From positions 34,483,501 through 34,547,500 of the forward strand of contig NC_091670.1 in the NCBI RefSeq assembly GCF_042453785.1: a DNA stretch of 64,000 nucleotides. Direction: 5' to 3'. Made by a program: the position numbers and the translations under genes. Every line of letters starts with the position of its first letter. Positions within the stretch are counted from its first letter, which is position 1. The notes under the pieces are model-generated. The model made no database searches, was not told where the DNA came from, and saw only the letters and a list, made by a program, of their open reading frames with translations. This DNA is from Malus domestica (lineage: Eukaryota; Streptophyta; Magnoliopsida; Rosales; Rosaceae). Below are positions 11,004-51,489 of this stretch, piece by piece.

Positions 11004-11154
11004 TGTTGGAATCCCATATTTGTGGGTGCAAAAAGAAAATAATGGGTTTAAATATGATCACCCCACTTGATGAGTCCATATTATACCATATATTTCACCC
11101 TAATCTTAGTATTAATTTATTGGTTATTTTGGTAGAATTTTGATACTTTGTTAT

Positions 11155-12094
11155 TGTAGACATCGAAATTTCGGTAAATAAATGTTGACCAATAAATCAA
11201 AGTGTCAACGCTCATGTATTACATAAATTTTACACGTAGCATGTGACTCAACGAAAATTGAAATGAGTTGGAAAAGTCATCAAATAAGACACGTGTCAAC
11301 ACCTGGCAGAAACGACTTATTTCATCTGGGATATTATATTCAAAATTAGGCCTTGGAAAATTCTATAAATACAAGCCCATTTCATTCATTTGGAGGACCA
11401 ATTCATATTACACCTTGAAGCTCTGAAGCTCTGAAGCTCCGAAGCTCTCAAGCATCCAGGTTCCCGAAGAATCAAGAAAGCTCTCTTCGTTCTTCGTTCT
11501 TCGTCCATCGCTCTTTCAAGATCAAGCCCCGACGGCCCTTGAAGAAAGCACCATCGTTCATCATCCGTTCTTCCAAGATCAAGCCCCAACGGCCCCTTTG
11601 GATCGACAACATCAACAAATCCGCTCATCCGCTGTTCATCAAGCCCAAGCCCCGACGGCCCTTGAAGAAAGCGTTCATCGTTCATCACTGTTATTCGAGA
11701 TCAAGCCCAAAAGCCCTCGAAGATCCGTTCAAGCCCAAAAGCTCTCGAAGATCCGTTCATCACTATTCTTCGAGTTCAAGCCCAAAAGCCCTCGGAAATC
11801 CGTTCATCACTGTTCTTCAAGATCAAGCCCAAAAGCCCTTGAAGATCCGTCAATCACCATTCTTCAAGATCAAGCTCAAAAGCCATTGAAGATCCGTTCA
11901 TCCTCGTTCATCCAAGATCAAGCCTCGACGGCCCTTGGATCAATCGCACATCCCACAAATCAACACCTTACGGAGATCGAATCAGAGGATCAAATTAGAG
12001 AGAGATTGTAACCCAAAATCATCAAATACATAATATTTGTTTGTGCACGTCGTTGTTCTTGTCTCTTTCGTTTCAGGAATTTTCCGTGTTCACA
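11155..12094 (+). repeat. 5' LTR of the gag-only retrotransposon
   Basis: 940 bp, TGTAGACATCG...GTGTTCACA. It has the same length as the 3' LTR and translates to identical peptides in the sampled frames. TATAAATA at 11364-11371 is a plausible core promoter. About 11510-11940 consists of imperfect repeats around TCAAGCCC(C/A).ACGGCCC or AAAAGCCC with TTGAAGA. Confidence 0.93.
11364..11371 (+). promoter_or_regulatory. TATA box of the 5' LTR
   Basis: TATAAATA lies in GC-poor sequence followed by a repeat-rich transcribed part. Its position about 210 bp into the LTR fits a U3/R boundary about 30 bp downstream. The same box recurs at the matching place in the 3' LTR. Confidence 0.65.
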
Positions 12095-12096
12095 AA

Positions 12097-12114
12097 TTGG
12101 CACGCCCGGTGGGA
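12097..12114 (+). other. Primer-binding site of the gag-only element
   Basis: TTGGCACGCCCGGTGGGA begins two bases after the LTR end. This is the type of primer site found in plant Gypsy elements. The exact tRNA primer was not assigned. Confidence 0.7.
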
Positions 12115-12172
12115 TAATCTCTACCTCTCATCTCTTTCTCCGTTCAAGGAATCCAAGCACACCTCAAAGTCA

Positions 12173-14137
12173 ATGGCATCAAGCAAGGGACAAGCCATTC
12201 TCGCAACCACTGAAGGAAGGATCCTAAGCACTTCTGCCGCAAACGGACAATCCATTGGCGCCACAACCGCTCCTCAACATGCCACTTCAAAATTGGTGCC
12301 GCTAAAAGAGCAAGGGGAGCATCCAAGGTGTGAGTATGTCATCAACCTGACCTCACTGGGGGCACCGAAGCACGATGTTGGGGCACACAAGATGACATCC
12401 CAAAGCAGCCAACGACGTTCTTCATCAGCATCCTGGATGTCTAAAGGAAAGTCACGTCTATTGGTCGCACAAGTCATGACTATCGGCGTTACCTCCGTTG
12501 AAGAACAACTGGCTCAAATGAATGAAGCAATCGCAAGGCTAACCCGAACTGTGGAAGAAAAAGACTTGCAAATTGCAGCACTAGTCAACCGACTGGAGGC
12601 GCAGGACGACGATAAACCCGACCCAGAAGATGATCCACTAAAGGGAGGAGCTGGCGGAGACGAAGAACCCCCGGTGAAGAAAATCGATGGGAAGCCGGAG
12701 CCAGACCAAGCAGCGGCACTCATGGGATCTCTTTCTATCCAGCAGCTGCAGGAGATGATCACCAACACCATCAAGGCACAGTACGAAGGGAGCTCACATA
12801 CCTCCTTGTTCTACTCGAAGCCCTATTCCAAGAAGATTGATGCCCTAAAAATGCCGAGGGGATATCAACCACCAAAGTTCATGCAATTTGATGGAAAGGG
12901 AAACCCGAAACAGCACGTTGCCCACTTCGTTGAAACTTGCAACAACGCAGGAACCGAAGGGGATTACCTCGCCAAGCAGTTTGTGCGCTCGCTGAAAGGA
13001 AACGCCTTTGAGTGGTACACAGACCTAGAGCCTGAGTCCATCAACAGCTGGGAGCAGTTAGAGCGGGAATTCCTCAACCGCTTCTATAGTACCCGCCGCA
13101 CTGTGAGCATGCTAGAACTAACGAGCACAAAGCAGTGGAAGGACGAGCCAGTCATTGACTACATCAACAGATGGCGCACTCTAAGCCTCGACTGTAAAGA
13201 CAGGCTCTCGGAAACCTCTTCAATCGAGATGTGCATCCAAGGCATGCAATGGGGTTTGCAATACATCCTTCAAGGCATTAAACCACGGACCTTCGAGGAA
13301 TTGGCCACTCGCGCTCATGACATGGAGTTGAGCATCGCTCATCATGGGAAGAAAGAACCGATCGCCGACTACAAGAACGACAAAGTTCTTGGGACAAAGG
13401 TGGAAAAGGCTGCATGGAAACCCACCAAGGAAGCGATGACGGTCAACACAGCTCCCGTCAAAATCTCCACACGAGGCAAGGCGATTCAAACCGAAGCTTT
13501 TCGTGATCAAGAGATGCGTAGACGCACTTTGAAGGAGCTTGAGGAAAAGATTTATCCATTCCCCGACTCTGCTGTAGTTGCCATGCTGGATGACCTGTTG
13601 GACAAAAAGGTGATCAGTTTGCCTGAGTGCAGACGGCCGGAAGAGATGAATCGTACCGACAGTCCAAGGTACTGTAAATTCCACCGCTTCATCAGTCATC
13701 CGACAGAAAAATGTTTTGTGCTGAAAGATCTCATCATGAAGTTGGCTCAGAAAGGAATCATCGAGCTAGATCTGGACGATGTGGTGAAGTCAAACTATAC
13801 CACCTTCACTTCTGGCTCTTCCGACTCAAAGTTTTCACCTCAACCGTTGGGGGCATCCTCCAAGACAAGCAAAGTTGAAGGATGGACTCAAGTCACTCCT
13901 AAGAAATTGCACAAGAAGCATACGTCTCCTCCACAAGTCCGCCAATCGGAAAGGGGGCAAAGCAGCTCTTGTCAACCTTCGAAGCAACGTGAACGTGTTG
14001 AAGATGATGAAATTTCGACATATAGATCGTCCATCCCCATCACGATGCGTGATTTCTTGCCCGAAGACTTCTTCAATCACTCGGTCAAGGCTCCTTGCTA
14101 TGAAGATTGTGAGGAACGCCTCTCCAAAATTGCTTGA
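12173..14137 (+). CDS. gag: Retrotransposon Gag polyprotein
   Basis: 654 residues from the first in-frame ATG; the frame is also open upstream through the primer site, but without an ATG. The N-terminal third is low-complexity, with a coiled-coil-like stretch (about 105-150, MNEAIARLTRTVEEKDLQI) and an acidic linker. About 245-390 matches the plant retrotransposon gag domain (PMQFDGKGNP-type start, FVRSLKGNAFEWYTDLEP, SWEQLEREFLNRFY). Near the C-terminus, CKFHRFISHPTEKC resembles a zinc-knuckle-like CX2H/HX4C module. The protein ends soon after and no protease or polymerase follows, so it would form particles but cannot reverse transcribe. The frame is unbroken, agreeing with the recent insertion. 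The Gypsy assignment rests on gag and primer-site type only. Confidence 0.88.
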   Translation: MASSKGQAILATTEGRILSTSAANGQSIGATTAPQHATSKLVPLKEQGEHPRCEYVINLTSLGAPKHDVGAHKMTSQSSQRRSSSASWMSKGKSRLLVAQVMTIGVTSVEEQLAQMNEAIARLTRTVEEKDLQIAALVNRLEAQDDDKPDPEDDPLKGGAGGDEEPPVKKIDGKPEPDQAAALMGSLSIQQLQEMITNTIKAQYEGSSHTSLFYSKPYSKKIDALKMPRGYQPPKFMQFDGKGNPKQHVAHFVETCNNAGTEGDYLAKQFVRSLKGNAFEWYTDLEPESINSWEQLEREFLNRFYSTRRTVSMLELTSTKQWKDEPVIDYINRWRTLSLDCKDRLSETSSIEMCIQGMQWGLQYILQGIKPRTFEELATRAHDMELSIAHHGKKEPIADYKNDKVLGTKVEKAAWKPTKEAMTVNTAPVKISTRGKAIQTEAFRDQEMRRRTLKELEEKIYPFPDSAVVAMLDDLLDKKVISLPECRRPEEMNRTDSPRYCKFHRFISHPTEKCFVLKDLIMKLAQKGIIELDLDDVVKSNYTTFTSGSSDSKFSPQPLGASSKTSKVEGWTQVTPKKLHKKHTSPPQVRQSERGQSSSCQPSKQRERVEDDEISTYRSSIPITMRDFLPEDFFNHSVKAPCYEDCEERLSKIA

Positions 14138-14149
14138 CAAATTCACCAA

Positions 14150-14345
14150 AGCTCATTGTCTGTAAGAGCCTAAACTGCAAGACACAAGGCTCCTCGCCCG
14201 CACGAGCCTAAACTGCATGGCACAATGCTCCTGGTCTGCACGAGCATAAAAGGCAACACCAACGCTCCTTGTCTGCACGAGTTGAAACTGCAAACGACAC
14301 CAACGCTCCTTGCCTGCACGAGTTGAAACTGCAAACGGCACAAAA
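14150..14345 (+). repeat. Short tandem repeats after gag
   Basis: About four to five imperfect units of 37-45 bp, each with GCTCCT(T/C)G.C(T/C)GCACGAG followed by T.AAACTGCA. Non-coding; its position where pol would begin marks the truncation of the element's coding region. Confidence 0.7.
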
Positions 14346-15080
14346 AGAAAATACCAAGAAAAAAAAATATGCATGTATTTGAACTACGTTACGACTTGAT
14401 CTCTTCTTTAGAGGGGTACGTAGGCAGCTTGAATATTCGAAATTTCGAGTTCAATCACATCAAAATCAAAAGAATAAATGTTTTATTAAAGAAGGTCAAT
14501 TTCATTACAAATTTATTTTTGTTAAGAAAATTTGCAATTTTCTTTGTACAAAATTAAATTACAGTTTCTTCGAAAAAAAATTTTGAATACATATGTTATT
14601 ATGTATTTAGAAAAAAAAAAGAAAAAAAAAAAGAGAAAAAAAAAAGAGATACAATTTCTTCAAAAAAAAAAAAAAAAAAATACATATGTTATTATGTATT
14701 TAGAAAAAAAAAAAAACAAAAGAAAAGAAAAAAAAAATATATATATATATATATAATATATGAGTGTCTCGGCCCAGCAGCAAAAGGGCTCAAGCCACAA
14801 CGGGCCCAAACTCCAGCTTGTCTTCTTCCTCATTTCTCCTTGGCCCACAGTGCAGCCCAGCAGAGCACACAACTCCAACCCCATCTTCTAATCACTCACT
14901 CATCCCCACTGCCAGGACACCCAAAAGCATTTCCCTTCAACTTCGTCGGCCTCCGCCGCCTCAACGACGTCGTCCTCTGGGAACGCCTCGTCGTCAAATA
15001 ACTACTTCAGTGCTGCTTCCGGGTCCACCCCAAGATTTCCTATGCCGTCTTCCACTCCCGTTGACCATTGCCTCCGTCAA
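14346..15080 (+). other. Non-coding spacer with A-rich and TA tracts
   Basis: Contains GAGGGGTACGTAGGCAGC, a motif I remember from internal regions of related plant Gypsy elements, then long A/AG-rich and (TA)n runs at about 14570-14760. GC-rich sequence begins at about 14765 and leads into the captured host fragments. The origin of 14765-15080 is not recognised. Confidence 0.5.
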
Positions 15081-15377
15081 ATGCCGCACCAGGAGATCGA
15101 TCTGCTGAAGATCGTGAAGAGGTTTTTTGGATCCGAAACCGGACTGTGGGCTCGGGTTGCAGCTACCGCTCATTGATCGCCTGCCCGATGTGCTCAAGAA
15201 CAGGCTCGATCGCTCCAGGACGCCTTCGATCTGGCAATCCGGTCCCACGACTACGGCTCCCATTACCAGGGCGTGTACCCGGTGAAATGCAACCAGGACC
15301 GGTTCGTCGTGGAGGACATTGTCAAGTTTGGATCGCCGTTCCGGTTCAGACTGGAAGTCGGGTCGAAGCCGAAGCTC
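15081..15377 (+). pseudogene. ADC: Captured arginine decarboxylase fragment
   Basis: About 99 codons, in three frames joined by two frameshifts. They read PHQEIDLLKIVK, then [20 protein letters not shown], then [20 protein letters not shown] and [12 protein letters not shown]. This is the N-terminal half of plant arginine decarboxylase, which makes agmatine for polyamines, and includes the YPVK lysine that binds pyridoxal phosphate. No intron is seen and the rest of the enzyme is missing. It lies in sense orientation inside the retrotransposon, immediately before the next captured fragment. It cannot make enzyme. Confidence 0.85.
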
Positions 15378-15396
15378 ACTCCGTACGGTAACAGCC

Positions 15397-15813
15397 ATGT
15401 CTGTACAGACCGCCGCGTCTGCCGTATCATCGCCAGACCATGCTGCCGAGAAATGGTTTTCGGTGCCGGAGCTCCGACTCCGAGACCACCGATTCACTGT
15501 GCCCCTTGACTACTCCGTCGATCGTACCGCTTCGCCTAAGATCTCAGTCTTCGCTCGCGAAGTTGTTTCAGTTAGTAAAGAAGAACAACAATTGCCATAC
15601 CTATTATATCTACAAGGTGGACTTGGATCTGAGGCCCCCGACCAACTAAATCCAGTGGATGGATATGTAAAGCAGGTGAAGAATTTCGTGTTATGTTGCT
15701 GGATCAGCGAGGAACATAGTTTATTCGAGTACACCTTGTTTCTGATGCTGCACCATGGATACGTAAAGCGTGTAAGAAGACGCTGGGGACGACATGGGAT
15801 TTCTTTAGGATGA
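15397..15813 (+). pseudogene. Captured prolyl-iminopeptidase-like hydrolase fragment
   Basis: An open frame of 138 residues starting at ATG. Residues about 20-75 read [20 protein letters not shown], then YSVDRTASPKISVFAREVVS and LPYLLYLQGG, the N-terminal part of the plant alpha/beta hydrolase annotated as proline iminopeptidase. After the QGG motif the match degrades. EEFR.MLLDQRGT, the oxyanion-side motif region, appears in another frame near 15677-15714, so a frameshift has occurred. The nucleophile elbow and the remainder are absent. Sense orientation within the retrotransposon. Confidence 0.75.
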
Positions 15814-16030
15814 GGGACGAGTAGATGAAGCACCCCGTGCTTTCCAATCAGCTCCACCACGCCACTCCTGGCCTCGGCATCGCTCTCGTTACATTCAGCG
15901 GTGAGCAGATCTACGACCGCCTCATATCAATGTTTTGAGGCACCAAATATCAACGTTTTCAGAAACCCGAGATAGGGAGAGGGCAAGAGACACATGGCGA
16001 AGATCCAACGGTCGCCGGAAGAATTTCATA

Positions 16031-16307
16031 GCTGTCGAGGCGGAGTTGGCGGCAGCCAAAAAGGCGTCTACAAATAAGGAGAGTGGAAAATCCTCTGTTC
16101 TTTTGGATGTCAAGCCTTGGGACGATGAGTCTGACATGAAGAAGCTCGATGAGGCTGTTCGGAGTGTCGAGATGGAGGGTCTCTTCTGGGGCGCATCGAA
16201 ATTGGTTTCCGTTGGTTACGGGATCAAGAAGTTGCAGATCATGCTCACCATTGTCGATGACCTTGTTTCCGTCGATGACCTCATCGAAGACCAGCTTACC
16301 GTTGAAC
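16031..16307 (+). pseudogene. Captured elongation factor 1B beta/delta fragment
   Basis: About 92 codons without a stop. They read [12 protein letters not shown], then [40 protein letters not shown] and [20 protein letters not shown], ending in TVEP. This is the C-terminal nucleotide-exchange domain of eEF1B beta/delta, missing about the last 15 residues. It sits in a longer chimeric frame (15935-16660) that runs on into the next fragment in a wrong frame. No intron interrupts it, which suggests capture from a spliced transcript. Confidence 0.88.
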
Positions 16308-16311
16308 CCCC

Positions 16312-16545
16312 GCATCGGCAACATCAGCACGGGCAGTGCACTTCTGGACTCAAAGCTCAGCAACAGCGGCGGCACCGGCAGCTTCGAGGTCGAGTCTCGG
16401 AAGCTCCCTTCCTCCAAGTACAAAAGCGTGGTCCCGTAGCCAAACGGACGCCAGGGCCCACAACGTTGCTGCACAACGCTTCCGTCGCCACAACGCCGGC
16501 ATCAACTTCGAGTCTTCATCTACTGAACCCAGCTCCCGGTCTTAG
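16312..16545 (+). pseudogene. Captured RAV/TEM-type AP2 transcription factor fragment
   Basis: One frame reads [20 protein letters not shown], then a stop, then PNGR. After an internal deletion, another frame reads [20 protein letters not shown]. These are the start and end of the AP2 domain of RAV proteins (normally [20 protein letters not shown] ... AARAYDVAAQRFRGRD). The central WLGTF-type part is missing. It follows the eEF1B fragment directly and has the same orientation. Confidence 0.75.
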
Positions 16546-17336
16546 CACTCCGCCTCGCCAAGTCCACCTTCATCACTGCAGGATCGTTCCCAAGCAGAAG
16601 TTGGTCCCCGCAAGGTTCGAGGTAAGGATGTACTTGGGAATGCCGTGGTGGCTGCTCTAAACCACTATACATCAAACAAAAAAAAAACTTGTGAATGCAT
16701 GGGGCAACCCAATCTCAAACACCATCGAGCGGGACTCCTTCTCCGTCATCTCCTGCTACTTCCAAAGCTGCACCGCTCCTCTTTGCCCATCTTCCACCGC
16801 AGCTGCCAACGACTTCAACGACCGCCGTCAAACGACTAGCCGGTCGTGAAGCTCGAAGCACCATCTTCTCCGTCCTCCTTGCTCCGCTGCCTGCAAATTT
16901 CTTTACCCATCATCAACATTTATACAAAAAAGATATATTAAAAAAATAGGATGGTGGAGCAAAGCAAAGTGGTGCATCTGGCACCACGTGAAAAAAAAAG
17001 AGGAATGGTGGATCAAAGATGGGGTACAGCCCCATGGCAGATCAAAAGTTTCTGGTGGTGCATGGGCACCATGTGCAGAAAGAAAGAAAGCAAAAAAAAT
17101 AAATAAAAAATAAATATTGTAAAAAAAAAAAAAATAAATAAATAAATAAACATAAAAAAAAATAATAATAAAAAAAAAAAAATGATGGAACTTGGTGCAT
17201 CCAGCACCAAAAGAAAAAGAAAAAAAAAACAAATGCATAGAGAGAAATAGAAGGTCCATTTTATTTATTTTTCTGGAAATTATACATAAATTTAAAAAAA
17301 AAAATCAAATCAAATCAAATTTACAAGAGGGGATAT
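16546..17336 (+). other. GC-rich remnant then A-rich spacer with GGTGC hairpins
   Basis: 16546-16900 is GC-rich and coding-like, but the source is not recognised; it may be further captured sequence. 16960-17230 holds repeated self-complementary motifs (GGTGCATCTGGCACC, GGTGCATGGGCACC, GGTGCATCCAGCACC) separated by A-rich tracts. Confidence 0.45.
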
Positions 17337-17948
17337 TCAAGGACGATCAGGTGGCGCCTCACAACTCGGCAGAGCTCCAGGAAGAGAAGGCGTTAGAGGT
17401 TGGCTGTTTGAAGCCTCAGCAGTCGGTACAGCCCCAGAAGACGAAGGTAAATGCTGCTGGAACAAACCCACAAACCTCCGATGATCAAGTAAGATCTGAC
17501 CATCAGATTCCTGCATCTGGTCAATTTTCCTCTTCATGTTTGTGGCATAGTTGTGTGCAAGCTTGTGCAACTGTTTATTCTCATGCTTGAGCCCTCTGAT
17601 CTCCTGTTTGAGACTCATCACTTCAGCCGCCAACGATTCAACTTGACGGGTTCGAGCAAATAGGCGTTGGGCCATGTTGGACACAGAACCCGCACACTGC
17701 ACACTTAGAGCCAGGGACTCCTTAACGGCCAACTCATCAGACCGCCTGGAAAGTAGTCTGTTATCTTTGGGAGTGACAAGGTTCCGGGCCACCACCGCAG
17801 CGGTCATATCATTCTTCATCACCGAATCCCCAACAGTAAGAGGACCAGTAGGGGATATGAAGGATGGGCGCCATATGTTATCTGGAGAAGACGGGACTAC
17901 CTCTTCACCAAGGTTCAAATCAAAACGACGGTCGGAGGGACCAGACAT
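17337..17948 (-). CDS. Antisense ORF of unknown function in the retrotransposon
   Basis: 203 residues from ATG (MSGPSDRRFDLNLGEEVVPS) on the strand opposite gag; 13 more codons are open upstream without an obvious need for them. About residues 95-150 form a probable coiled coil (QVESLAAEVMSLKQEIRGLK, then HENKQLHKLAHNYATNMKRK). The tail is rich in P/S. No catalytic motif is visible. Extra antisense ORFs in the 3' part are known in plant Tat-lineage Gypsy elements, and this one looks like that class. Function unknown. The frame is intact, as expected for a young insertion. Confidence 0.65.
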   Translation of the reverse strand: MSGPSDRRFDLNLGEEVVPSSPDNIWRPSFISPTGPLTVGDSVMKNDMTAAVVARNLVTPKDNRLLSRRSDELAVKESLALSVQCAGSVSNMAQRLFARTRQVESLAAEVMSLKQEIRGLKHENKQLHKLAHNYATNMKRKIDQMQESDGQILLDHRRFVGLFQQHLPSSSGAVPTAEASNSQPLTPSLPGALPSCEAPPDRP

Positions 17949-18450
17949 TTTCAAAGTGTTGAAGGAAGAAGAGATCGGACAAATCAAGATCTTAGAAGTA
18001 CAAGAGGGAAGTTTTCACAAGCGAAAATTCAAGTGTGTTTTGAAACGAACTGCATGCCTCTATAAAAAATCAGCACTCGACGGGATTTCAGAGATCGAAG
18101 AGGCGAGCTCAGAATTCGAAGAGGCCATTCAAAAATCGAAGAGGCAAGCTCAGAAATCGGAGAAGCATCTTGCTTTTCCAGACGTGTCGGCACCCGTCAC
18201 ACGCAAACTCAGCGTTGCGGAAATCACGGGTAATTTGTCGAAGCGCCAATCCCAGATATCGAAGAGGCGCCAGTCTTTTTCAGCCGAGTCATCACCTGTC
18301 ATATGCACACTCAACTTTGCGCAAATCACGGGCAATTTGTCGAAGATTTTCGGTGAAAGAGAAAGCACGTGAAATTTTACTGTTCAATCACGCGTTAGTT
18401 GCCGACACGAGTGAAAGAATAGTACCTCTACAAGTATTAAAGAACTTCCT
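17949..18450. repeat. Duplicated segments upstream of the antisense ORF
   Basis: Two copies of about 110 bp around CATTTGC or GTTGCGGAAATCACGGGTAATTT (about 18178-18245 and 18280-18345), plus repeated ATCGAAGAGGC motifs at 18090-18150. It would be the 5' leader of an antisense transcript. CTATAAAA at about 18060 is on the plus strand, so it does not serve that ORF. Confidence 0.5.
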
Positions 18451-19200
18451 ATAACTGTCCATCTTCACCCTCCATAGCAAGGCAGACATACAAAACCTTT
18501 CTTCATCTCTGAGAATGCCTTCCCAACGAAGCCTCTTGAGTTACCCAGTGTTCCTTATTCCTTGGGGTACCTCTGCAAGCCAATGACTCCAAAGCAAAAG
18601 TATCTCATATCACCAGGGTAGAAAGCAAGAGTATCTCATATCATGCGTTCTCCCTGTCCTTTCCTTTATCCCTGTTCTTACCTACAAAGACAAGGATAAA
18701 GAAAACAATATGCCGGAACTTCCACTCAAACTCGGGTAAGGAACCGACTGCTTGGAACCCTTCCCTGATTGCCTACCTAGCACTGCTCTCGAGTACTCGC
18801 CTTCCACTGCTGCTGTACTTTCAAAGAAGCTGCCACATCTGCCTGAAGAACAGATAAGGCAAGTGAAAATGATACCTTGCAGCATGTGGAGACAAGGTGC
18901 AGAAGGAACAAGCAGAGAAGAATGCAGCATGCTCAGTTAACTCGGCAGAAAGAGTCTGAGATGAAGAACTCGTTTTGACCCTCAAATTCTTGGGTCGACT
19001 TACTAGGCGTTGTGGGCTGCACGTGCTGATTCACCACCCTTGAATCAAATCCTTAAAGATCATGTCACCAACGGGAAGAAGAGCTCATCAACCTTGAAGA
19101 TCATACCGTTGACCAAACTGCTCAGGTGTGAATTAGAAAGATTGAACAAAGAAACAGGTTGTCACCTTTACCTCGTGCCTGCTTACCATGTGTTCGAGTC
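18451..19200. other. Non-coding 3' part of the gag-only element
   Basis: No supported gene. Short frames lack domains. The sequence continues into the minisatellite that precedes the 3' LTR. Confidence 0.4.
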
Positions 19201-19690
19201 AACCTTCAAGAATCAAGCCTCAACGGCCCTTGAAGAAGCTTCCAGCCAAATTCAAAATCAAGCCTCGACGGCCCTGGAAGAAATCACAAGTCCGATTCAA
19301 GATTAAGTGTCTACCACCCTTGAATCAAAACCTAGTTCAAGAATAAGCTGTGGAAAATCAACAATTGGAGGAATCTAGAAAATCCTTCAACCCAGTTCAA
19401 GATCAAAGCTGTGGAAAGTCAACAAAGCGCAACAAAATACGTGTCGATTCACCCACTACCAAAGCCAAAGATCATCTACCACATGAAACTCCTTGTGGTC
19501 CAATTTCAACCTTCAAGATCAAGCCTCGACGGCCCTTGAAGAAATTTCAAACAACAATTCAAGATCAAGCCTCAACGGCCCTTGAAGAAATCTCAAGCCC
19601 AATTCAAGATCAAGCCTCAACGGCCCTTGAAGAAATCTCCAGCCCAATTCAAGATCAAGCCTCGACGGCCCTTGGATCGACATCTATAGT
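19201..19690 (+). repeat. Minisatellite related to the LTR repeats
   Basis: About seven imperfect units of about 40 bp built on TTCAAGATCAAGCCTC(A/G)ACGG and CCCTTGAAGAAAT. The same motif makes up the repeat block inside both LTRs (11510-11940 and 20117-20547). It lies just upstream of the polypurine tract. Confidence 0.8.
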
Positions 19691-19761
19691 AAGGGACTTC
19701 AAAACACATCTCCTACACGTGACAAGCACATGTATACGACGTGCCTTGAAGTGGGGGCATT

Positions 19762-20701
19762 TGTAGACATCGAAATTTCGGTAAATAAATGTTGACCAAT
19801 AAATCAAAGTGTCAACGCTCATGTATTACATAAATTTTACACGTAGCATGTGACTCAACGAAAATTGAAATGAGTTGGAAAAGTCATCAAATAAGACACG
19901 TGTCAACACCTGGCAGAAACGACTTATTTCATCTGGGATATTATATTCAAAATTAGGCCTTGGAAAATTCTATAAATACAAGCCCATTTCATTCATTTGG
20001 AGGACCAATTCATATTACACCTTGAAGCTCTGAAGCTCTGAAGCTCCGAAGCTCTCAAGCATCCAGGTTCCCGAAGAATCAAGAAAGCTCTCTTCGTTCT
20101 TCGTTCTTCGTCCATCGCTCTTTCAAGATCAAGCCCCGACGGCCCTTGAAGAAAGCACCATCGTTCATCATCCGTTCTTCCAAGATCAAGCCCCAACGGC
20201 CCCTTTGGATCGACAACATCAACAAATCCGCTCATCCGCTGTTCATCAAGCCCAAGCCCCGACGGCCCTTGAAGAAAGCGTTCATCGTTCATCACTGTTA
20301 TTCGAGATCAAGCCCAAAAGCCCTCGAAGATCCGTTCAAGCCCAAAAGCTCTCGAAGATCCGTTCATCACTATTCTTCGAGTTCAAGCCCAAAAGCCCTC
20401 GGAAATCCGTTCATCACTGTTCTTCAAGATCAAGCCCAAAAGCCCTTGAAGATCCGTCAATCACCATTCTTCAAGATCAAGCTCAAAAGCCATTGAAGAT
20501 CCGTTCATCCTCGTTCATCCAAGATCAAGCCTCGACGGCCCTTGGATCAATCGCACATCCCACAAATCAACACCTTACGGAGATCGAATCAGAGGATCAA
20601 ATTAGAGAGAGATTGTAACCCAAAATCATCAAATACATAATATTTGTTTGTGCACGTCGTTGTTCTTGTCTCTTTCGTTTCAGGAATTTTCCGTGTTCAC
20701 A
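19762..20701 (+). repeat. 3' LTR of the gag-only retrotransposon
   Basis: 940 bp, TG...CA, apparently identical to the 5' LTR, and followed directly by target-site duplication GTTAT at 20702-20706. Confidence 0.93.
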
Positions 20702-21641
20702 GTTATATATTTTCAATGTAGGGCATTCGACTTCCTCTGGTGCAAAAAGTGATCAAACGGATGAATTTTGGAGTGATTCCAATTGGAGGATGTTCATGTG
20801 CCCTTCAAGATGATTGTGTCAAAATTCCATATTTTTCTATCTAGCCGTTTGACCGTGGCAATGAAATAAAGGCCCATCGCGCAGCTTTCCTAGATTGATG
20901 TTTCTAGACATTTTGGGTATATTGAAGGTCAAGATGGCATATTTTGAGGAAGATTCCTACTGAGGATTTGTAGGGGACGTCTTTAGCTTTCAAAAGAGAC
21001 CTTATGGGACCAAATCGTAGTTGATTTGGTAGGTCAAAAGATTAATTTCTGAGAACTCCGAATTCTAGTTCAAATAGGAAACCTTTTATTTTCTGTTTTA
21101 TCATTTAATTATGTTTCCTAGTTTTATTCTAAGACCTTTTATAGGAAGGATTTTATTTTGTAGTAGTATAAATAAGGCTTTTTATTCATTAGGAGAGAGG
21201 GGGGGAGAACGCACGCATTTTGGTTTTAGAGAGCTTTTGACGATTCAAGTTTATTTTCAAGGTGTTTTATATCCATGTTTCTAACAGTATTTTATTTTAT
21301 GATTGTTCGAAACTAGTTTCTTTTCAATTTGCTTATGATATTATGGATGCAAGTTTTGAATTATTAGTCACTGTACTTTAAACTATCTAATTGTCTTGAT
21401 GATTGGCCACCATTAGAGTATCTAGAAAAGTAATTTGATGCAATTTTGGCAGAGGGTTGTTCCTGGAATTGGCATTGGCTTCTTATGGTTAATATGTGTA
21501 ACTTCTTAGGATGGACGACATGTCTTAAGGGTTATATGGTTTTTCAGAAGGTTTTCACAAAACTTAATGAGTTTGGCATGTTCACATTCGATCTGAACAC
21601 CACAGACAAGTTGCATGTTAGATATATGTTCTATGTTGGAG

Positions 21642-22117
21642 CAGAGCCGTCCCTGAGGGTGTGCAAAAGGTGCAACCGCACAGGGCCCCCAATTCGGAAG
21701 GGCCCACAAAATTTCTTTACATGTACACATATACATATAAATATATTAAATGTGCAAGAGAATATCGAAGTTATTTGTAAGCGGTAGTGGGTTAGGCTTC
21801 CTACTCTTTCACCCAGGAGTAGGGTTCGATTCCCTATGGCTTTGCTTTGGAATTTTAATTTTTTTTGCATATTATAAACTTATTGAGCAGACAAATTTAC
21901 ACAAAAACATTCACCTTATTTCGAATTCAAGACCTTTTGAAGATAGAAAAAAAAACTCCTATAAAACAAACTTATTTTTTATTCCCTAATTTGTAATATT
22001 TCAATTTTATTGAATAAATTGAAAGTTAAGAAATAATATAAAAAAATACACCGTTAGAAAATGAAGGCCCCTGTCTAAATTTTGCACAGGGCCCCTAAAT
22101 TCTCAAGGCCGGCCCTG
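21642..22117. mobile_element. hAT-type MITE in the loop of the palindrome
   Basis: 476 bp. The terminal inverted repeats are CAGAGCCGTCCCTGAG at the left and CAGGGCCGGCCTTGAG (reverse complement) at the right. Perfect 8-bp target-site duplication TGTTGGAG (21634-21641 and 22118-22125). The ends extend into imperfectly paired GTGCAAAAGG and GGGCCC stretches. No transposase. The 8-bp duplication and CAG-type ends identify hAT. Confidence 0.9.
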
Positions 22118-23325
22118 TGTTGGAGGTTCCAAGTAGGATATATATTAGGAAAACCTAACCTTCAAAATATGCTAGTGTAAGTCATAAGTAATTGGAAGAA
22201 TTACGTAGGATTGTTAAGGTGACGGCGGAACCCTAGTGCTTAAATAGATTGCAAAACTATTTTCTTTTGGTTTTTTTTTTTGTGAAAACCTTCTGAAAAA
22301 CCATATAACCCTTAAGACGTGTCGTCCATCCTAAGAAGTTACACATATTAACCAAAGCCAACGCCCATTCCAGGGACAACCCTCTGCCAAAATTATATCA
22401 AATTACTTTTCTAAATACCCTAATGGTGACCAATCATCAAGACAATTACATAGTTTAAAGCACAGTGATTAATAATTCAAAACTTGCATACATAATATCA
22501 TAAGCAAATTGAAAAGAAACTATATATTCTTGCTAAGGCTCGTGGCCTCGCCCTAGCAAACAAAACTAGTTACGAACAATCATAAAATAAAATATTGTTA
22601 GAAACATGGATGGAAAACACCTTGAAAATAAACTTGAATCATCAAAAGCTCTCTAAAGCCAAAATGCGTGTTCTTCCCCCCCTCTCCTAATGGCTAAAAA
22701 GCCTTATTTATACTACTACAAAATAAAATCCTTCCTATAAAAGGTCTTAGAATAAAACTAGGAAACATAATTAAATGATAAAACAGAAAATAAAAGGTTT
22801 CCTATTTGAACTAGAATTCGGAGTTCTTAGAAAATTAGTCTTTTGACCGACCAAATCAACTCCGATTTGGTCTCAAAATGTCTCTTTTGAAAGCTGAAGA
22901 CGTCCCCTACAAATCCTCAGAAGGAATCTTCCTCAAAATATGCCATCTTGACCTTCAAAATAATCAAAATGTCCAGAAACGTCAATCTGAGAAAGCTGCT
23001 CGCTTGGCCTCTATTTCATTGCCACGGTCAAACAGCTAGTTAGAAAAATATGGAATTTTGACACAATCATCTTGAAAGGAACATGAACATCCTACAATGA
23101 AAATATATAACAAAGTATCAAAATTCTACCAAAATAACCAATAAATTAATACTAAGATTAGGGTAAAATATATGGTATAATATGGACTCATCACCACTCT
23201 TACTAATATCGAGATTTTTTGTGGTAAAACCTCACACCTAACGGTTTGGACAGATAATAAAGTTGAAGACAATATTGATATCGTTAGAGTGAAATCCCCA
23301 AACTGTCGATCTAAAAATTCCAACA

Positions 23326-24563
23326 AATCGGTTTCTCCTTATCATCTCCAAACAACATAGAACTCTTTGCATTTATGTTTGGCTTTTTTCCCAGTTTCAC
23401 CTGTAAGGGAAGGGCAAAGGTGGTCTAAAGATTCCCTGGAGACCGGAGAGCAATGCATGCAGTTGTGTTAATTAATTATATATGTGCGTGGTGACGAATA
23501 TCCCTCTATGCAATATTTTACGATTGTCTTTCCTTTAATTTTATTAAAATTTAGTTCATGTTATTATGCACTAAAATTCCTAAGGATTCCACTGATATGG
23601 AGCAGTAGTGGACCTACAAAATATTCCTCGAGATTCTTTTTTTATGCACAAGAATCATGGAAAGTGGATGCATGGGGAAGAAACAATATAAAAATGAGAG
23701 AAATAGTTTCATGCAGTTGGACACATCGTAAAATGTTGTACTGGTACAACACATGTTTACTGCAAGTGCAAGCTGCATGTTTTATGTCAAAAGCTTGTAT
23801 TTGAGCATAGAAAACGTAGGCTTAAAGAAGGGATAGATGAAGTGTGAGTTTGAAACAAGGAGCCTACCCAGCCTACCCATTTCATTAATTAAGGTCATTA
23901 TCTGATTGATGCCAGATGGTTAAGCGTGTTTAAGAATTAATTAGTTTGAATATTTGACTTTATTAAGAGGAGGAAAAATGTTAAATTTTGACATTTCACA
24001 CCATAATATAACATCCTTTGAGATTGACAAGAAAACATTAATTGGGTGGAGATCCCATCGCTGATTGGTCAAAACATGATGGACCAATTTCAAACTTAAC
24101 ATAAGTTCAAGACTTCATAAGGTCAGGTAGAAAATCATTTGAACTGTCTCTCAAGACCTTTGGTCTCTACCCTAACCTGATGAAAAAAAATGCAATCACT
24201 TCTTGTAGACTCGTTGAGAATGATTTTGATGTACGCCAAAAAATTTCATACCGCTACCATTTAGTATTCATCTTTACTTGGTGATAAATAAAGCACCTTC
24301 AGCTCTTTCAAACTAAAAAAAAAGATGTTGAAGAAGATTATATAGGAACATGAAAAAACATAAAAATAAAACGCAATACAAGATCAATACAAAGCCAGAG
24401 TTTGATTTCTTCCTAAAAAGGTATTTGTATTTTAGAAGGGAAAAATACTTCAAAGATGAAAATGTTCCTATTTAATAGTCAAGAATTCTGGACGGCGTCG
24501 AGTAGGAGCAAATACCAATATAATTACTATCAAGTCACGCCAGGCATAAAACATGCATCCATA
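23326..24563. other. Intergenic, nothing recognised
   Basis: Starts with the right target-site duplication of the TRIM element (AATCG). AT-rich sequence without a supported gene. About 24500-24555 resembles 27300-27355 (ATATAATTACTATCAAGTCA core), a dispersed repeat. Confidence 0.4.
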
Positions 24564-24950
24564 TGTTGGAATATGATTATGATAACATGATTTTCACAAT
24601 ATGTGTAATCATGTGTGAAGGTACACCATAATATTGGTGTACTAATATACATATGATTGTAGTGAAATAAGTTAATTAATTAATAAAGAAAATAATATAA
24701 TTATTATTTTTTATTTAATTTATTTCAACATAAAAAGTTATAACTTCCCCTAAAAAATACAACTCCACTAGAAGGGTTATTTCCATCTCTATATATTTGT
24801 CAAATCCTTTTCTGTCATATTCATTCAATTTGATACTTACTCTCTGTTCATATCCTTCACACCATATTGTGATCGATAGTCTAAGTGACATTCGTTTCCG
24901 ATCTTGTGTACTACCCTATTTTCTAACATTGGTATCAGATCCAGGTTTTC

Positions 24951-25508
24951 ATGAATCAAAACAATTTGCCTAGTTTTCATCTGAGGATGTTTCGAACTAC
25001 AATTGAGACTTCCTCTTCGTCAAGTAACGAATCAAACAACGTTCTTACTGAGTTTCAACTTGAGAAGAAATTAGGGAAGAGGACGTTGTTGGACAAGGAA
25101 AATATTGAACCGATTTTGATCGAAAGTTCGAAATCGACATACGAGAATTTTCCTGCAGAATCCAAAACTCACAAAAATACCCAATCGTTCGAACATTATA
25201 ACTTGTTCGAAATCCCATCCTACAACCGATTTAAACCCAGACCTGAATTAACCCAACAATTCGAACTATTTTCCCCCACACCATTTCATTCAGCAAAGAA
25301 CAAAACTCAATCTGCCATTGAACCACTTCAGCATTCAAATTCACTAAGTTCACTCTCCGAATATAATTACCATTATCAGAATTTGAATGAATTACATCTA
25401 GAGGGTTTATTCAATCCTATTAGAACCTTAGAAAACCCATTGCAAATGGCATTGCTGGCTGCAAAAACCGAATCTGCACAAGAAATTGAAACTACAAGTG
25501 CCGATTGA
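24951..25508 (+). CDS. Unknown 185-residue ORF in the Copia-like element
   Basis: Begins 22 bases after the 5' LTR, right behind the primer site, with an ATG. The product is rich in N, E, S and L, with no zinc knuckle, gag, protease or membrane motif that I recognise. It contains MFRTTIETSSSSSNESNNV near the start and NYHYQNLNELHLEGLFNP near the end. Its position suggests expression from the LTR. It could be a highly diverged or unrelated replacement of gag, or a captured host sequence. No function is claimed. Confidence 0.45.
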   Translation: MNQNNLPSFHLRMFRTTIETSSSSSNESNNVLTEFQLEKKLGKRTLLDKENIEPILIESSKSTYENFPAESKTHKNTQSFEHYNLFEIPSYNRFKPRPELTQQFELFSPTPFHSAKNKTQSAIEPLQHSNSLSSLSEYNYHYQNLNELHLEGLFNPIRTLENPLQMALLAAKTESAQEIETTSAD

Positions 25509-25581
25509 TTTCCTACATTTTAGTCACCAAGCCCAAGGGATTTACCTGCACCTTCAAGTCTGATTCAAAGTTGCTCTTAGA

Positions 25582-26016
25582 TTACTGCAAATCCGAATTT
25601 GAACTCGCAACTTTCGGCTTGAAAAATAAGCCATTCACGCCCTCTGCCTCTCCCGTGGTCTTGCCTTCCACCATGGACTCGCCGCAGCATCCCATTAACT
25701 CATAACACTCAGCAGCGTGGTTGTGTTCTCCCACCATTGTCATGTCCTCTAGTTGTCGTCTCGTGCTCTCGTGGTAATAAACCACGCCTTCAACACCGTT
25801 ATCCTCCAAGAAGAATTGTCTCTGTCGTTCAAGATTATCTGTCGGGCTGTAGAACGAAGTATTTCCGTAGACAATAGAGAAAGGCACCTGTTTTTTCCAG
25901 AGGAAGTACTTTGAAAATAAGAAGAATAAGGGAAAAACTTGCTTTTGGGGAGGCTTCACATGGGAAACAAATAAAATATAAGGGATTTTATGGTTCTGAG
26001 CAATTTGACAGTGCAT
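25582..26016 (-). other. Open antisense frame, possible captured fragment
   Basis: A 144-codon open frame opposite to the element's sense strand. The middle part (RQRQFFLEDNGVEGVVYYHE, ESTRRQLEDMTMVGEHNH) has coding-like composition unlike the AT-rich surroundings, and the local GC content is raised at about 25640-25870. The family is not recognised. It may be a piece of host gene in antisense orientation. Confidence 0.3.
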
Positions 26017-27114
26017 TCAAAGGAGATAGTGCATGTGAAAAAAACAATTTGCAATAATAGAGATTGGTGTCCATCACATAGTCAAGTCAACAGAGTTTTT
26101 GAAGTGGGCTCTTCTTCTAGGCAAAATTCGGGACAGCTGAAATTGGACCCATTTCCTACTCGTTTGGGTGTTACGATCAAACCAAATTCAACTCTATTTG
26201 GGATGCCTGAAACATGGACAAGTAGATGCAACTCTATTTGGTTCTTTAGTACTTAGTTGGTTAATGATAAAGGGCACTAGCAAGGTAACCAAGTTACAAT
26301 AAATCATCTTGAAAGTAAAATCCGTAATAAGCTTTAAGAAATAATTTATATAACATTGTGGCGTATAGTGCGGCGCTAAGTCATCATTTGTAACCGGGTA
26401 TGGATTGTTTTTCCTAGTTACTTGGATATGATGCCATTTTACTAAAAAGTAAAATGTTATCAGATAAAGTGGAATGGTGCGCACCAGGTAAAGAAGCCAC
26501 ATATCTTATATTACATTGAATTTCTTTATGAGTAATACTCTTGAGAAACAAATCAGAATAAGAAACCATTTATGTCATCATAATCAAGTGGGAGATGTTG
26601 GAATATGGTTATGATAACATGGTTTTCACAATATGTGTAATCATGTGTGAAGGTACACCATAACATTGGTGTACTAATATACATATGATTGTATTGAAAT
26701 AAGTTAATTAATTAATAAAGTAAATAATATAATTATTTTTTATTTAATTAATTAATTCTAAAAGATATGAACAGTTGTATTTCAACATGAAAAGTTATAA
26801 CTTCCCCTGAAGAATACAACTTCTCCAGAAATGTTATTTTCATCTCTATCAAATCATTTTTTGTCAGATTCATTCAATTTAATACTCACTCTCTGTTCAT
26901 ATCCTTCACACCATATTATGATCGATAGTCTAAGCGACATCCGTTTCTGATCGTATGTACTACCCTATTTCTAACACTATGCACCTATGCAGGTCTCATT
27001 TACGAACGTAAGTCATCTCTCCCTAACCCTATTTACACACACGCACAAGGATTGACATTACTATAAAAAAAATCTAGCTAGATTGACATTGAAGCAATGT
27101 TTGGAGATTCCCTT

Positions 27115-33715: not shown

Positions 33716-35653
33716 ATGGAGGCAACAATGCCGAAAACGGCTCTAATATGGTCATTCTTCATGGCATTTTGTAGCTTCATCGTAATTCATGTCTACGCAG
33801 AGGACTCTCAAATGGGTTACCGTCAATTTTCCGGTGGCGATTACAATGATCATTTGCGAAAACTGCAAGAGTTCAAGGCTTCACTCACCCGCCACGATTC
33901 GCTTTCTGTTGCACCATCTTCAATCCCACCCTCTCCTAGTCCTAGCCTTATTGTTCCGCCAACGGTAATTCAATCGCTTTGTGCATAAATTTTCGCATTT
34001 TTCTTTGATAATTTGGTTGTTTAATTCTTGGTTAAAATGTTGGGACAGAAGCTTCGTTGTTGAAAAGTATTTGTGATTTGTTAGTCCATGTTGAAAATGG
34101 GTGATGGTTGGTGCAGGGGAGCGCTAGTCCACGTGTTTATCGCGTGACATCGTACGGTGCTGATCCGACGGCGAGCAGAGACAGCAGTGATGCACTTGCT
34201 CAAGCAATGGCAGATGCATTTAGAGGCCCAACTGAAGGGTTCTTGATTGACGGTATTGCCAACCTTGGAGGTGCCCAGATCGATCTTGAGGGTGGCCATT
34301 ATCTGATCAGCAGACCCCTGAGGTTGCCTGGAGCCGGAGTAGGAAATCTTATGGTATGCCCCGATTAACATTATTTTCTTAAAGATTTGATAAAATCCTA
34401 CCATAAAGTTTCCGCGGAATTCCAATACATGCGAGTTATGCCAGATGTTCGTTCTTTGGCTCGCCCTCGGGAATGTACCGAGTCTAATATGTGTTTCCTA
34501 ATTGTTGATCAAATACATATCAACATGATGATATGAATTAAGCGATGTGATTAGGTTTGTGTGATAATTTGAACATTCTTTTTTTATGAAACAGATTCAT
34601 GGAGGAACGTTACGCGCTTCGGACGATTTTCCAGCTGACGGATACCTGATTGATTTATCTCCAACATCATCAGCTAGCAAGAAAGAAGAAACCAAAAAAG
34701 GGAGCTCAATGTCCGCACAGCTTTCTTCATCATCCTACAACTATGAGTACATAACTCTCAAGGACCTACTTTTGAACTCTAACTACAGGGGAGGGGGCAT
34801 TTCAGTCATAAACTCACTTAGGATAAGCATAGACAATTGTTACATAACACATTTCACCACCAATGGAATCCTAGTGCAAAGTGGCCACGAAACTTACATC
34901 CGAAACTCCTTCCTAGGGCAGCACATCACCGCTGGTAGTGATCGCGGTGAAAGAAACTTTTCCGGGACTGCGATTAACCTAATGGGGAATGATAATGCTG
35001 TGACAGATGTGGTGATTTTTTCTGCTGCGGTAGGTATAATGATTTCGGGTCCAGCCAACATACTTTCCGGGGTACATTGCTACAATAAGGCTACCGGATT
35101 TGGGGGCACCGGAATTTATTTGAGATTGCCCGGGTTGACACAAACCCGAATTGTGAATTCGTACATGGACTACAGCGGCATTGTTGCGGAAGATCCGGTG
35201 CAGCTTGATATCTCCAACAGTTTTTTCCTTGGTGAAGCATACATTGTCCTAAAATCAATAAAAGGGGTTGCCAATGGGGTCAATATTGTAAACAACATGT
35301 TTAGTGGGTTCGATAAGGGGGTAGAGATTGTTCAATTGGACCAAAATAATGGGCCTTTCAAAGAGGTTGAACAAGTATATGTGGACAGGAACAATGTGAG
35401 GGGCATGAACACAAAAGGCACAGTTGGAAGGAGGTCTGTGCAAGGCAATGGGAGCTCATGGACCGTAGATTTCAATCCAATTCTACTATTTCCTAACCTT
35501 ATTCGGCATGTCCAATACACGCTGAGCGCCAGCGGCAATGCGTTCCCTAACCATACCTTAAGGAACGTGTCGAATAACCGTGTTGTGATCGAGTCGAATG
35601 TGGCGGCTCCGGCTTCTGTTTTTGTGACAGTTGATCAAGGAGTGGCAAACTGA
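33716..35653 (+). CDS. QRT3: QUARTET3-type polygalacturonase, 3 exons
   Basis: Cleaves pectin of the pollen mother cell wall so that microspores separate; in Arabidopsis it is made in the tapetum and secreted. Exons 33716-33964, 34117-34353 and 34595-35653 join to 1545 bp, 514 residues, with GT-AG introns in phase 0. A signal peptide is visible (ALIWSFFMAFCSFIVIHVYA, cleavage near AEDS), followed by a proline/serine-rich stretch (PSSIPPSPSPSL). A right-handed beta-helix (pectin-lyase fold) region starts at VYRVTSYGADPTASRDSSDA. Conserved QRT3 blocks include IHGGTLRASDDFPADGYLID, SGHETYIRNSFLGQHITAG, GVHCYNKATGFGGTGIYLRL and DGNGTSWTVDFNP-like near the end. It is slightly longer than Arabidopsis QRT3 because of the linker. 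It looks intact. Confidence 0.95.
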
Positions 35654-45715: not shown

Positions 45716-46278
45716 TGGATATGTGGTATTATTATCTTTTATATAGTTTTTGACATGTTGCAGTCCTATTAGATTAGAAATATAATTGTGTAAATCTCAG
45801 TAGATATGAGAATGTATCTTATATTTCTATTAGGAGTATATTACTTATTAAATGTTGTAATCCTAAAGGGTAAGGAATTAACATTCCTTACTATTATAAA
45901 TAAAGGCACAATAGGGTAGAATAACACACACCCACAATTACACATCTATATCTTCTCTCTACTATTGCCGCACCTCCCTCTCTCTCTATGACCTCCGTAA
46001 TCGTGTAGTAAATTATGCCTACAACACGTTATTAGCATGCTCTTTACGTTGGGCTAACAAGAGAATTTATTCTTCAATCAGGAGAGTTTTACATTTTAAT
46101 CATTCTTTTTATGATTAATTTATTATTTTATTGAAATTATCTACATGCTATTTATTCAATTTAATTTTTCTGTGTTGAACGTGATACAACACATTGGAGA
46201 TGCAATTCCTGCTTTATGAGAAGGATATTCTACAAATTCAAAGGTTTTTGTAGTTTTCTGCCAATTAGGTACGCTTAA

Positions 46279-48677: not shown

Positions 48678-48764
48678 CTAAAAATGAAGTAAGATATTTG
48701 AAACGACCTTGAAGCATGAAAACATTTCCCATGATGCATGAACCCCTTACATTTATATTTACCT

Positions 48765-48805
<41 letters not shown>

Positions 48806-51480: not shown

Positions 51481-51489
51481 ATCATTCCT

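What the first reader, a model, noticed from the sequence alone, without database searches (positions are those of the whole stretch)
15081..16545. LTR retrotransposon carrying fragments of at least four unrelated host genes
Between gag and the antisense ORF lie, in one orientation and almost back to back, pieces of arginine decarboxylase, a prolyl-iminopeptidase-like hydrolase, eEF1B beta/delta and a RAV-type AP2 factor. Each is recognisable by long conserved peptide stretches, is truncated, and shows no intron. Gene capture by LTR elements is known, but a mosaic of four genes in a gag-only element with intact mobile ends is unusual. The sense orientation means the LTR transcript would contain sequence of all four genes and could yield chimeric RNAs or small RNAs against the parents.
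Basis: partly seen in the sequence, partly recalled or inferred. Interest (0 to 1): 0.9.

Follow-up and report, generated by a model that had tools for sequence, protein, structure and literature searches.

The report
Apple retrotransposon hoarding host gene pieces
A mobile DNA element in apple carries a patchwork of pieces from at least six unrelated plant genes, copied from spliced RNA, and its relatives carry other patchworks in the same slot, which shows how genes can be picked up and shuffled through RNA.

Summary
The window lies in an apple genome. At 11155-20701 is an LTR retrotransposon with LTRs identical over 940 bp, TSD GTTAT, intact gag, no intact pol and an antisense ORF. Its cargo (about 14873-16789) holds, in sense, pieces of six host genes: ADC, a prolyl-iminopeptidase-like hydrolase, NDUFB3, a GH3 beta-xylosidase, eEF1B and RAV, perhaps also a pectinesterase. 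Nearest host copies lie on C10, C1, C8 (two loci 9 Mb apart), C7 and C13.

The cargo derives from spliced RNA: two hydrolase introns are missing exactly; in relatives one intron each of UER1 and an anthocyanidin reductase. Relatives share backbone and slot but carry other gene sets; about 19 host gene families have database support. The ADC piece shares mutations with other elements, so it was inherited and recombined, not freshly captured. Microhomology is mixed: 5 of 14 junctions have 5 nt or more (p 0.0008), but the sum over 14 is not significant (p 0.12). Best explanation: a gag-only family with a cDNA cargo slot filled by template switching. LTR-element transduction is known (Bs1, soybean TRIMs); such a family-wide variable slot was not found in my searches.

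The parts
11150..11154 (.). 5' target-site duplication GTTAT
   Evidence: sequence
11155..12094 (+). 5' LTR (940 bp, TG...CA)
   Evidence: identical to the 3' LTR over 940 bp
12098..12114 (+). primer-binding-site-like sequence just after the LTR
   Evidence: read from the sequence; tRNA identity not tested
12173..14137 (+). gag ORF, 654 aa
   Evidence: PF03732 E 2.7e-14; dN/dS 0.10-0.34 against 12 other copies; 588 relatives at E<=0.001 among 7993 scored candidates
14559..14872 (+). A-rich tract and left backbone edge of the cargo slot
   Evidence: 14760-14872 is 90% like L024, which has other cargo next to it; this stretch recurs at many loci
15082..15377 (+). arginine decarboxylase fragment
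   Evidence: changes shared with L013, L014, L017
15367..15759 (+). prolyl-iminopeptidase-like hydrolase fragment, spliced from three exons, with an internal jump in exon 3; overlaps the ADC piece by 11 bp
   Evidence: 8jgn 2.9e-25; introns of 1,051 bp (GT-AG) and 99 bp (GC-AG) of parent L025 absent at 15571/15572 and 15707/15708
15772..15925 (+). NDUFB3 (complex I B12 subunit) fragment
   Evidence: parent L030, about 84%; 7a23 1.4e-29
15933..16022 (+). GH3 beta-xylosidase fragment
   Evidence: parent L031, about 93%; PF00933 1e-9
16036..16310 (+). eEF1B beta/delta GEF-domain fragment
16310..16541 (+). RAV (AP2/B3) fragment with a 71-bp internal deletion
   Evidence: the compared element copies share the deletion against L029
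16562..16672 (+). possible pectinesterase fragment (weak)
   Evidence: PF01095 E 0.048, below cut-off; 16536-16728 also matches C13 and C3 loci at 89-90%
16790..16960 (+). right backbone edge of the cargo slot
   Evidence: 30 of 40 scored loci match only from 16722 or further right, 18 of them starting exactly at 16790
17337..18014 (-). antisense ORF, 225 aa between stops
   Evidence: no Pfam family above its cut-off
19745..19761 (+). polypurine-like tract before the 3' LTR
   Evidence: read from the sequence
19762..20701 (+). 3' LTR (940 bp)
20702..20706 (.). 3' target-site duplication GTTAT

Best explanation
The feature is one member of an apple family of non-autonomous, gag-only LTR retrotransposons in which the place where pol would lie (after gag, before an antisense ORF) is a variable cargo slot. 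Proposed working: genomic RNA is packaged in gag particles; reverse transcriptase comes from an unidentified autonomous relative. Spliced host mRNAs are sometimes co-packaged. During minus-strand synthesis the enzyme jumps to an mRNA and back, at some junctions at a few bases of matching sequence and sometimes perhaps after running off the mRNA 5' end, which puts the cDNA in sense orientation between gag and the antisense ORF. Later jumps between co-packaged element RNAs trim and reassort cargo. This copy is such a second-hand composite: an ADC piece as in L013-type elements, a hydrolase-NDUFB3-xylosidase block as in L012, an eEF1B piece, and a RAV block as in L019/L024-type elements. Cargo frames are broken, so it is passenger sequence. 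Shown: structure, sense orientation, spliced origin of three genes' pieces, shared cargo history, recombinant backbones. Inferred: co-packaging, trans-acting enzyme, the order of steps, template switching itself.
For: Splicing: hydrolase introns 1 and 2 missing exactly; the UER1 copy in L024 runs from 67 nt of 5'UTR through the stop to 67 nt of 3'UTR with an intron of about 0.58 kb gone, exons 97-99% identical to C4 (parent hits 4qqr 1.8e-84); an ANR intron of about 0.64 kb of the C5 gene is missing in L023. Sense only: 7 of 8 cargos with sense Pfam matches, 0 of 8 antisense at E<=0.01. Separate parents, many with a second related copy on another chromosome. mRNA 5' ends: 3 of 14 fragment starts lie 28-39 nt after a TATA box, against 2.6% of positions. 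Microhomology of 5 nt or more at 5 of 14 junctions, against 5.7% expected per junction, p 0.0008. Shared changes between elements. Recombinant backbones: window and L009 are 97-100% identical from about 13555 to 18650 but 74-76% at 12055-12650; L011 departs within a few bases of the eEF1B/RAV junction. Slot: 30 of 40 scored loci share only the right edge; 15 of those 30 were fetched, and 8 of 10 ORF pieces that I picked by eye from 9 of the 15 hit host families. gag dN/dS 0.10-0.34.
Against: No transcript, particle or small-RNA data; the enzyme donor was not found. Microhomology is not general: the sum over all 14 junctions tested is 26 nt against 17.4 expected (p 0.12); a first test on 9 of them gave p 5e-5 but had left out five, of which two carry unexplained filler of 12 and 7 nt. 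11 of 14 fragment starts have no TATA box in range, some lie inside coding sequence. Introns could be tested in three genes only. The second ANR exon was matched on C5 but not found in the 1.4-kb C10 stretch. SHMT and WDR5 parents were never searched, as the tool stayed busy. The 20 long loci were chosen because they share this cargo. gag is shortened (236-566 aa from the first Met) in 6 of 13 other copies. An antisense scan of three further loci gave one sub-threshold family, FeoB_associated (E about 0.001), in two of three. By my rule of shared stretches of 80 nt or more, 16 of 21 slot ends fell into one cluster, mostly through the last 300 nt or so, so part of what lies left of the edge is shared. 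Gene names RBP45, CAF, LONGIFOLIA, SEUSS are recalled from peptides.
Confidence: 0.82

Rival explanations
1. A Pack-MULE or Helitron carrying the gene fragments inserted into an LTR element, which then amplified.
For: Such elements are frequent carriers of gene fragments in plants (passages in PMC2774510; PMC13317346).
Against: Precisely spliced cargo, sense only, no inverted repeats longer than 28 nt in 14100-17400, other cargo in the same slot in other copies, an mRNA copy with parts of both UTRs in L024. Helitron ends were not scanned for.
Confidence: 0.05
2. Processed pseudogenes made by LINE machinery inserted one after another into the element.
For: Explains spliced pieces; some junctions lack microhomology or carry filler.
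Against: Would be expected in both orientations and with target duplications; the pieces share one orientation and abut or lie a few bases apart.
Confidence: 0.04
3. Segmental capture of one genomic region or a read-through transcript containing neighbouring genes.
For: Pieces lie back to back in one orientation.
Against: Nearest host copies are on C10, C1, C8, C7, C13, with identities from about 96% (eEF1B) to about 85% (RAV).
Confidence: 0.01
4. The cargo is selected for a function (for example silencing of the parent genes) rather than carried passively.
For: The 1,465-bp block is identical in three copies, and apple gene sets contain predicted proteins from this family's cargo (P0001-P0003).
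Against: Frameshifts, a stop and internal deletions within the pieces; the identity fits recent transposition, as those copies' LTR pairs show no differences.
Confidence: 0.08

Closest known systems
Bs1 LTR retrotransposon of maize
   Same: LTR element with segments of three host genes (PMC13317346 passages; PMC5408686 passages), exons only according to PMC4717578; the 2010 Bs1 paper was not held
   Different: one element type with three genes; here copies carry different sets, six genes in the window copy
Soybean TRIM GmaRetroS15
   Same: exon-only pieces of three genes, 5-bp TSDs (PMC4717578 section 13 read whole)
   Different: TRIMs of 1,172-1,449 bp; 30 such elements in seven of 289 subfamilies; here a 9.5-kb element with gag and a fixed slot
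Maize B73 LTR retrotransposons with gene fragments
   Same: 425 elements with gene fragments (PMC2774510 passages)
   Different: the authors identified no case, under their conditions, of one LTR element with fragments of more than one standard nuclear gene
LTR-mediated retroposition by template switching (Tan et al. 2016, as cited in PMC5408686, passages)
   Same: same proposed mechanism: co-packaged mRNA and microsimilarity, several switches held possible
   Different: there a route to retrocopies; here layered cargo reassorted between elements
TR-GAG non-autonomous elements and HODOR of apple
   Same: gag-only non-autonomous type (search listing only); HODOR is a 9.2-9.7 kb apple/pear LTR element (passages)
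   Different: identity with HODOR could not be tested, its sequence was not at hand; no gene cargo was mentioned in the passages seen
Acutely transforming retroviruses (recalled)
   Same: defective element whose own genes are replaced by host cDNA and which depends on a helper
   Different: one or few genes under selection; here many broken passengers in a plant element

Membership tests
LTR retrotransposon | two LTRs with TG...CA ends and a target-site duplication | tested here: met
LTR retrotransposon | PBS and PPT beside the LTRs | tested here: inconclusive
   PBS-like and purine-rich sequences read; tRNA match not tested
Non-autonomous gag-only (TR-GAG-like) element | gag ORF present, no intact pol | tested here: met
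   PF03732; no other frame of 250 aa or more in the element except the eEF1B-containing cargo frame; no RT in a six-frame Pfam scan of 14740-16960; decayed pol outside that stretch was not scanned for
Ty3/gypsy Tat-type element | RT phylogeny | not testable with these tools
   no pol; only the antisense 3' ORF, as in Grande, RIRE2 and Retand in PMC7264820 (passages), points that way
Transduction by template switching | cargo derived from spliced RNA | tested here: met
   hydrolase, UER1 and ANR introns absent; uninformative for ADC, eEF1B and RAV
Transduction by template switching | sense orientation of cargo | tested here: met
Transduction by template switching | microhomology at junctions | tested here: inconclusive
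   5 of 14 junctions with 5 nt or more (p 0.0008); sum over 14 not significant (p 0.12)
Pack-MULE | terminal inverted repeats flanking the cargo | tested here: not met
Helitron | TC...CTRR ends with 3' hairpin | not tested
   no dedicated scan
HODOR | sequence identity to KX869746 | not testable with these tools
   sequence not at hand

The most novel reading that the evidence does not exclude
A whole high-copy plant retrotransposon family has turned its lost-pol position into a standing, hypervariable cDNA slot that keeps collecting spliced host mRNAs (some from the cap end) and reassorts them between copies, so that most lineages of copies carry their own set of host gene fragments.
Probability: 0.75. 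Interest if true: 0.85.

Novelty: new variant of a known kind. Interest (0 to 1): 0.78.

Why it matters
It makes RNA-level gene capture by LTR elements directly testable: one slot is shared by many copies (491 first-look candidates for its right edge, of which 40 were scored), some with LTR pairs that show no differences, and parents can be named, so capture rate, mRNA preference, junction rules and reassortment can be counted. It also warns that apple gene sets contain 'hypothetical proteins' that are retrotransposon cargo (P0001-P0003), and it supplies candidate sources of chimeric transcripts or small RNAs against named parents.

Tried and rejected
Segmental capture: contradicted by parents on different chromosomes. 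Nested DNA transposon: no TIRs, spliced cargo. Direct capture of ADC by this copy: contradicted by changes shared with L013-type elements. Exact shared block ends as evidence of module swapping: dropped, because such ends can follow from the query's own borders. First NDUFB3 query used a wrong frame and found nothing; repeated with the right frame. L036, L037 and L038 as host parents: uncertain, L037 may itself be chimeric. L032 (50 bp) was not used. A wide census and the SHMT/WDR5 parents were not reached.

Corrected on re-check: the first junction test (9 junctions, sum 40 against 11.1, p 5e-5) had left out five junctions with two known templates; with them the sum is not significant.

Counts with dropped rows: dN/dS is for 12 of 13 other loci; L027 broke the calculation and the script ended in an error after the window pairs. 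LTR pairs were computed for 12 of 14 elements; L017 and L024 had no usable pair in the stretch held. Fragment starts: 14 tested; NDUFB3, RAV and the third gene of L013 were not in the list. Junctions: 14 tested; borders with unidentified sequence on one side were left out, and in 4 of the 14 another element (L012, L019 twice, the window element) served as one template. NDUFB3 comparison: 17 shared columns, 1 in the window only, 27 in others only, 11 other, with L026 perhaps misaligned; RAV: 107 shared (about 71 of them the deletion), 0, 18, 16.

Full report
What the window is. A protein search with the cargo frame 15905-16657 gave best matches among apple proteins, one of them (P0001) 100% identical over 91% of the query; the own-genome search places the window at G000:C10:34483501-34547500 of a 651-Mb assembly. 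The element spans 11155-20701: LTRs of 940 bp without a difference, TSD GTTAT, a PBS-like and a purine-rich stretch, an intact 654-aa gag (PF03732) and an antisense ORF at 17337-18014. No other frame of 250 aa or more lies in it except the eEF1B-containing cargo frame, and a six-frame Pfam scan of 14740-16960 shows no reverse transcriptase, so no intact pol is present; decayed pol elsewhere was not scanned for.

The cargo. Six host genes are identified with a database match of the piece or its parent: ADC, the AT3g61540-like hydrolase, NDUFB3, GH3 beta-xylosidase, eEF1B, RAV. A pectinesterase match is weak; 14873-15081 is unassigned. The nearest host copies lie on C10, C1, C8 (two loci 9 Mb apart), C7 and C13, which contradicts segmental capture.

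RNA origin. The hydrolase parent L025 has introns of 1,051 bp (GT-AG) and 99 bp (GC-AG); both are absent to the base at 15571/15572 and 15707/15708. In relative L024 a UER1 copy runs from 67 nt of 5'UTR through the stop to 67 nt of 3'UTR, without its intron of about 0.58 kb, with two frameshifts, at 97-99% identity to the C4 gene; its start lies 32 nt after a TATATA box. In L023 an ANR intron of about 0.64 kb is missing, judged by the C5 gene; the second exon was not found in the fetched C10 stretch. Of 14 fragment starts, 3 have a TATAWA box 28-39 nt upstream, against 1,167 of 44,737 positions. The other 11 have none in that range, some being inside coding sequence, so 5'-end run-off is at most one of two routes.

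Family with a variable slot. Twenty 9-10 kb loci were fetched because they match the window's cargo: 13 are elements and 7 show no family LTR or gag. The 14 elements, counting the window, share LTR, gag and 3' backbone. Their cargo sets differ: L009 and L010 carry the window's set; L013/14/15/17 carry an LRX-like piece, a longer ADC piece and a third gene; L019/20 carry WDR5, SHMT and the RAV block; L023 carries eight further pieces before the RAV block, three of uncertain parentage; L024 UER1; L012 the hydrolase-NDUFB3-xylosidase block and others. A sample not chosen by cargo came from the search with 16530-16960: 491 first-look candidates, 40 scored; 8 match most or all of the query, 2 only the possible pectinesterase part, and 30 only from 16722 or further right, 18 of them starting exactly at 16790. 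I fetched 1.3-1.4 kb left of the edge in 15 of those 30. L045 and L054 carry nearly the same cargo, so do L047 and L056; L053 and L057 share the last 800 nt; by a rule of shared stretches of 80 nt or more, 16 of 21 compared slot ends form one cluster, mostly through the last 300 nt or so. From the ORF listing I picked 10 pieces from 9 loci by eye; 8 of 10, from 8 of 9 loci, hit host families above cut-off: receptor-type kinase, alpha/beta hydrolase of carboxylesterase type, another kinase, EH/EF-hand, WDR5-type WD40, bromodomain, 5MP HEAT, PLAC8. The choice was mine and favours recognisable pieces. Three of the 15 were scanned in all antisense frames: one sub-threshold family (FeoB_associated, about 0.001) appeared in two of three. 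Adding up gives about 19 host gene families with database support for a piece or its parent; names such as RBP45, CAF, LONGIFOLIA and SEUSS are recalled readings of the peptides and are not in that count.

How the window copy was built. Compared with two host ADC genes, the window shares five changes, one a 1-bp deletion, with L013, L014 and L017, and two more with L013 and L014. Against one host copy each, so without knowing on which side a change happened, it shares 9 columns with L012 in the hydrolase (7 only in the window, 6 only in L012), 17 in NDUFB3 (with L012 and L026), 8 in the xylosidase, and 107 alignment columns in RAV, about 71 of them the common deletion. L012 runs on into another sequence after a stretch that differs from eEF1B at one of 12 positions, where the window switches to eEF1B. 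L011 shares the window cargo at 99% up to 16317, a few bases past the eEF1B/RAV junction, and then carries other sequence. Window and L009 are 97-100% identical from about 13555 to 18650 but 74-76% at 12055-12650. This is the pattern of recombination between co-packaged RNAs.

Junctions. Overlaps at 14 junctions were 11, 1, 12, 5, 9, 1, 2, -7, 6, -12, -7, 2, 3 and 0 nt (negative: unexplained filler). Five of 14 reach 5 nt, against 5.7% expected from random joins (p 0.0008), but the sum of 26 does not differ clearly from 17.4 (p 0.12). A first version with 9 of these gave p 5e-5 and is superseded. Short repeats also border internal jumps (GTTTAT in hydrolase exon 3; GTCAGA in ANR of L023, read). 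So microhomology helps at some borders and is absent, or replaced by short filler, at others.

Activity and selection. LTR pairs without differences: window 940, L009 933, L010 797, L011 591 and L019 618 compared bases; five others K 0.007-0.011, L023 0.041 (303 bases), L027 0.068. gag shows dN/dS 0.10-0.34 between the window and 12 other copies; in 6 of 13 other copies the longest gag frame is shortened. Cargo frames are broken. So gag is or was needed and the cargo is not maintained as protein.

Literature. Passages of PMC2774510 state that among 425 maize LTR elements with gene fragments no case with more than one standard nuclear gene was identified. Bs1 with three genes and soybean GmaRetroS15 with three are the nearest precedents. 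PMC7264820 (passages) notes that transduced sequences usually lie in the sense of gag-pol and that antisense ORFs before the 3' LTR are a separate recurrent feature. [quoted passage not shown] Searches listed nothing whose title or abstract start describes such a family in apple; most subscription papers are not held, so this is not proof of absence.

Noticed in passing
20782-23098: An inverted-repeat structure (arms 87.8% alike over 828 bp, about 0.7 kb between them) lies right beside the element's 3' end, perhaps a foldback or TIR element.
   Followed up: no
45756-54921: Two direct repeats of 271 bp, 90% alike and 8.9 kb apart, perhaps another, older LTR element.
   Followed up: no
24563-26976: Direct repeats of about 390 bp, 84% alike, 2 kb apart.
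   Followed up: no
34568-35653: 361-aa open frame that reads like a QRT3-type polygalacturonase (recalled), so a likely host gene.
   Followed up: no
62305-63075: 256-aa open frame on the - strand that reads like a VQ-motif protein (recalled).
   Followed up: no
L026:4419-5126: Locus on C15 without a match to the family's LTR or gag in the 10 kb held, but with an open frame running through a FAD_binding_4 (DWF1-like, recalled) piece, 34 bp of the hydrolase, and NDUFB3 and xylosidase pieces: another gene mosaic, perhaps of a more distant family.
   Followed up: partly
L024:4472-5809: UER1 mRNA copy with parts of both UTRs, a young capture at 97-99% identity.
   Followed up: yes
16562-16672: Possible pectinesterase piece; 16536-16728 matches C13:16212873 and C3:28868292 at 89-90%.
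   Followed up: partly
L023:4100-4179: A piece (cargo bases 776-855) that ends at a likely splice donor in its genomic match L038 and joins a sequence that starts after an AG in L039, which could be a spliced rather than a template-switch joint.
   Followed up: no
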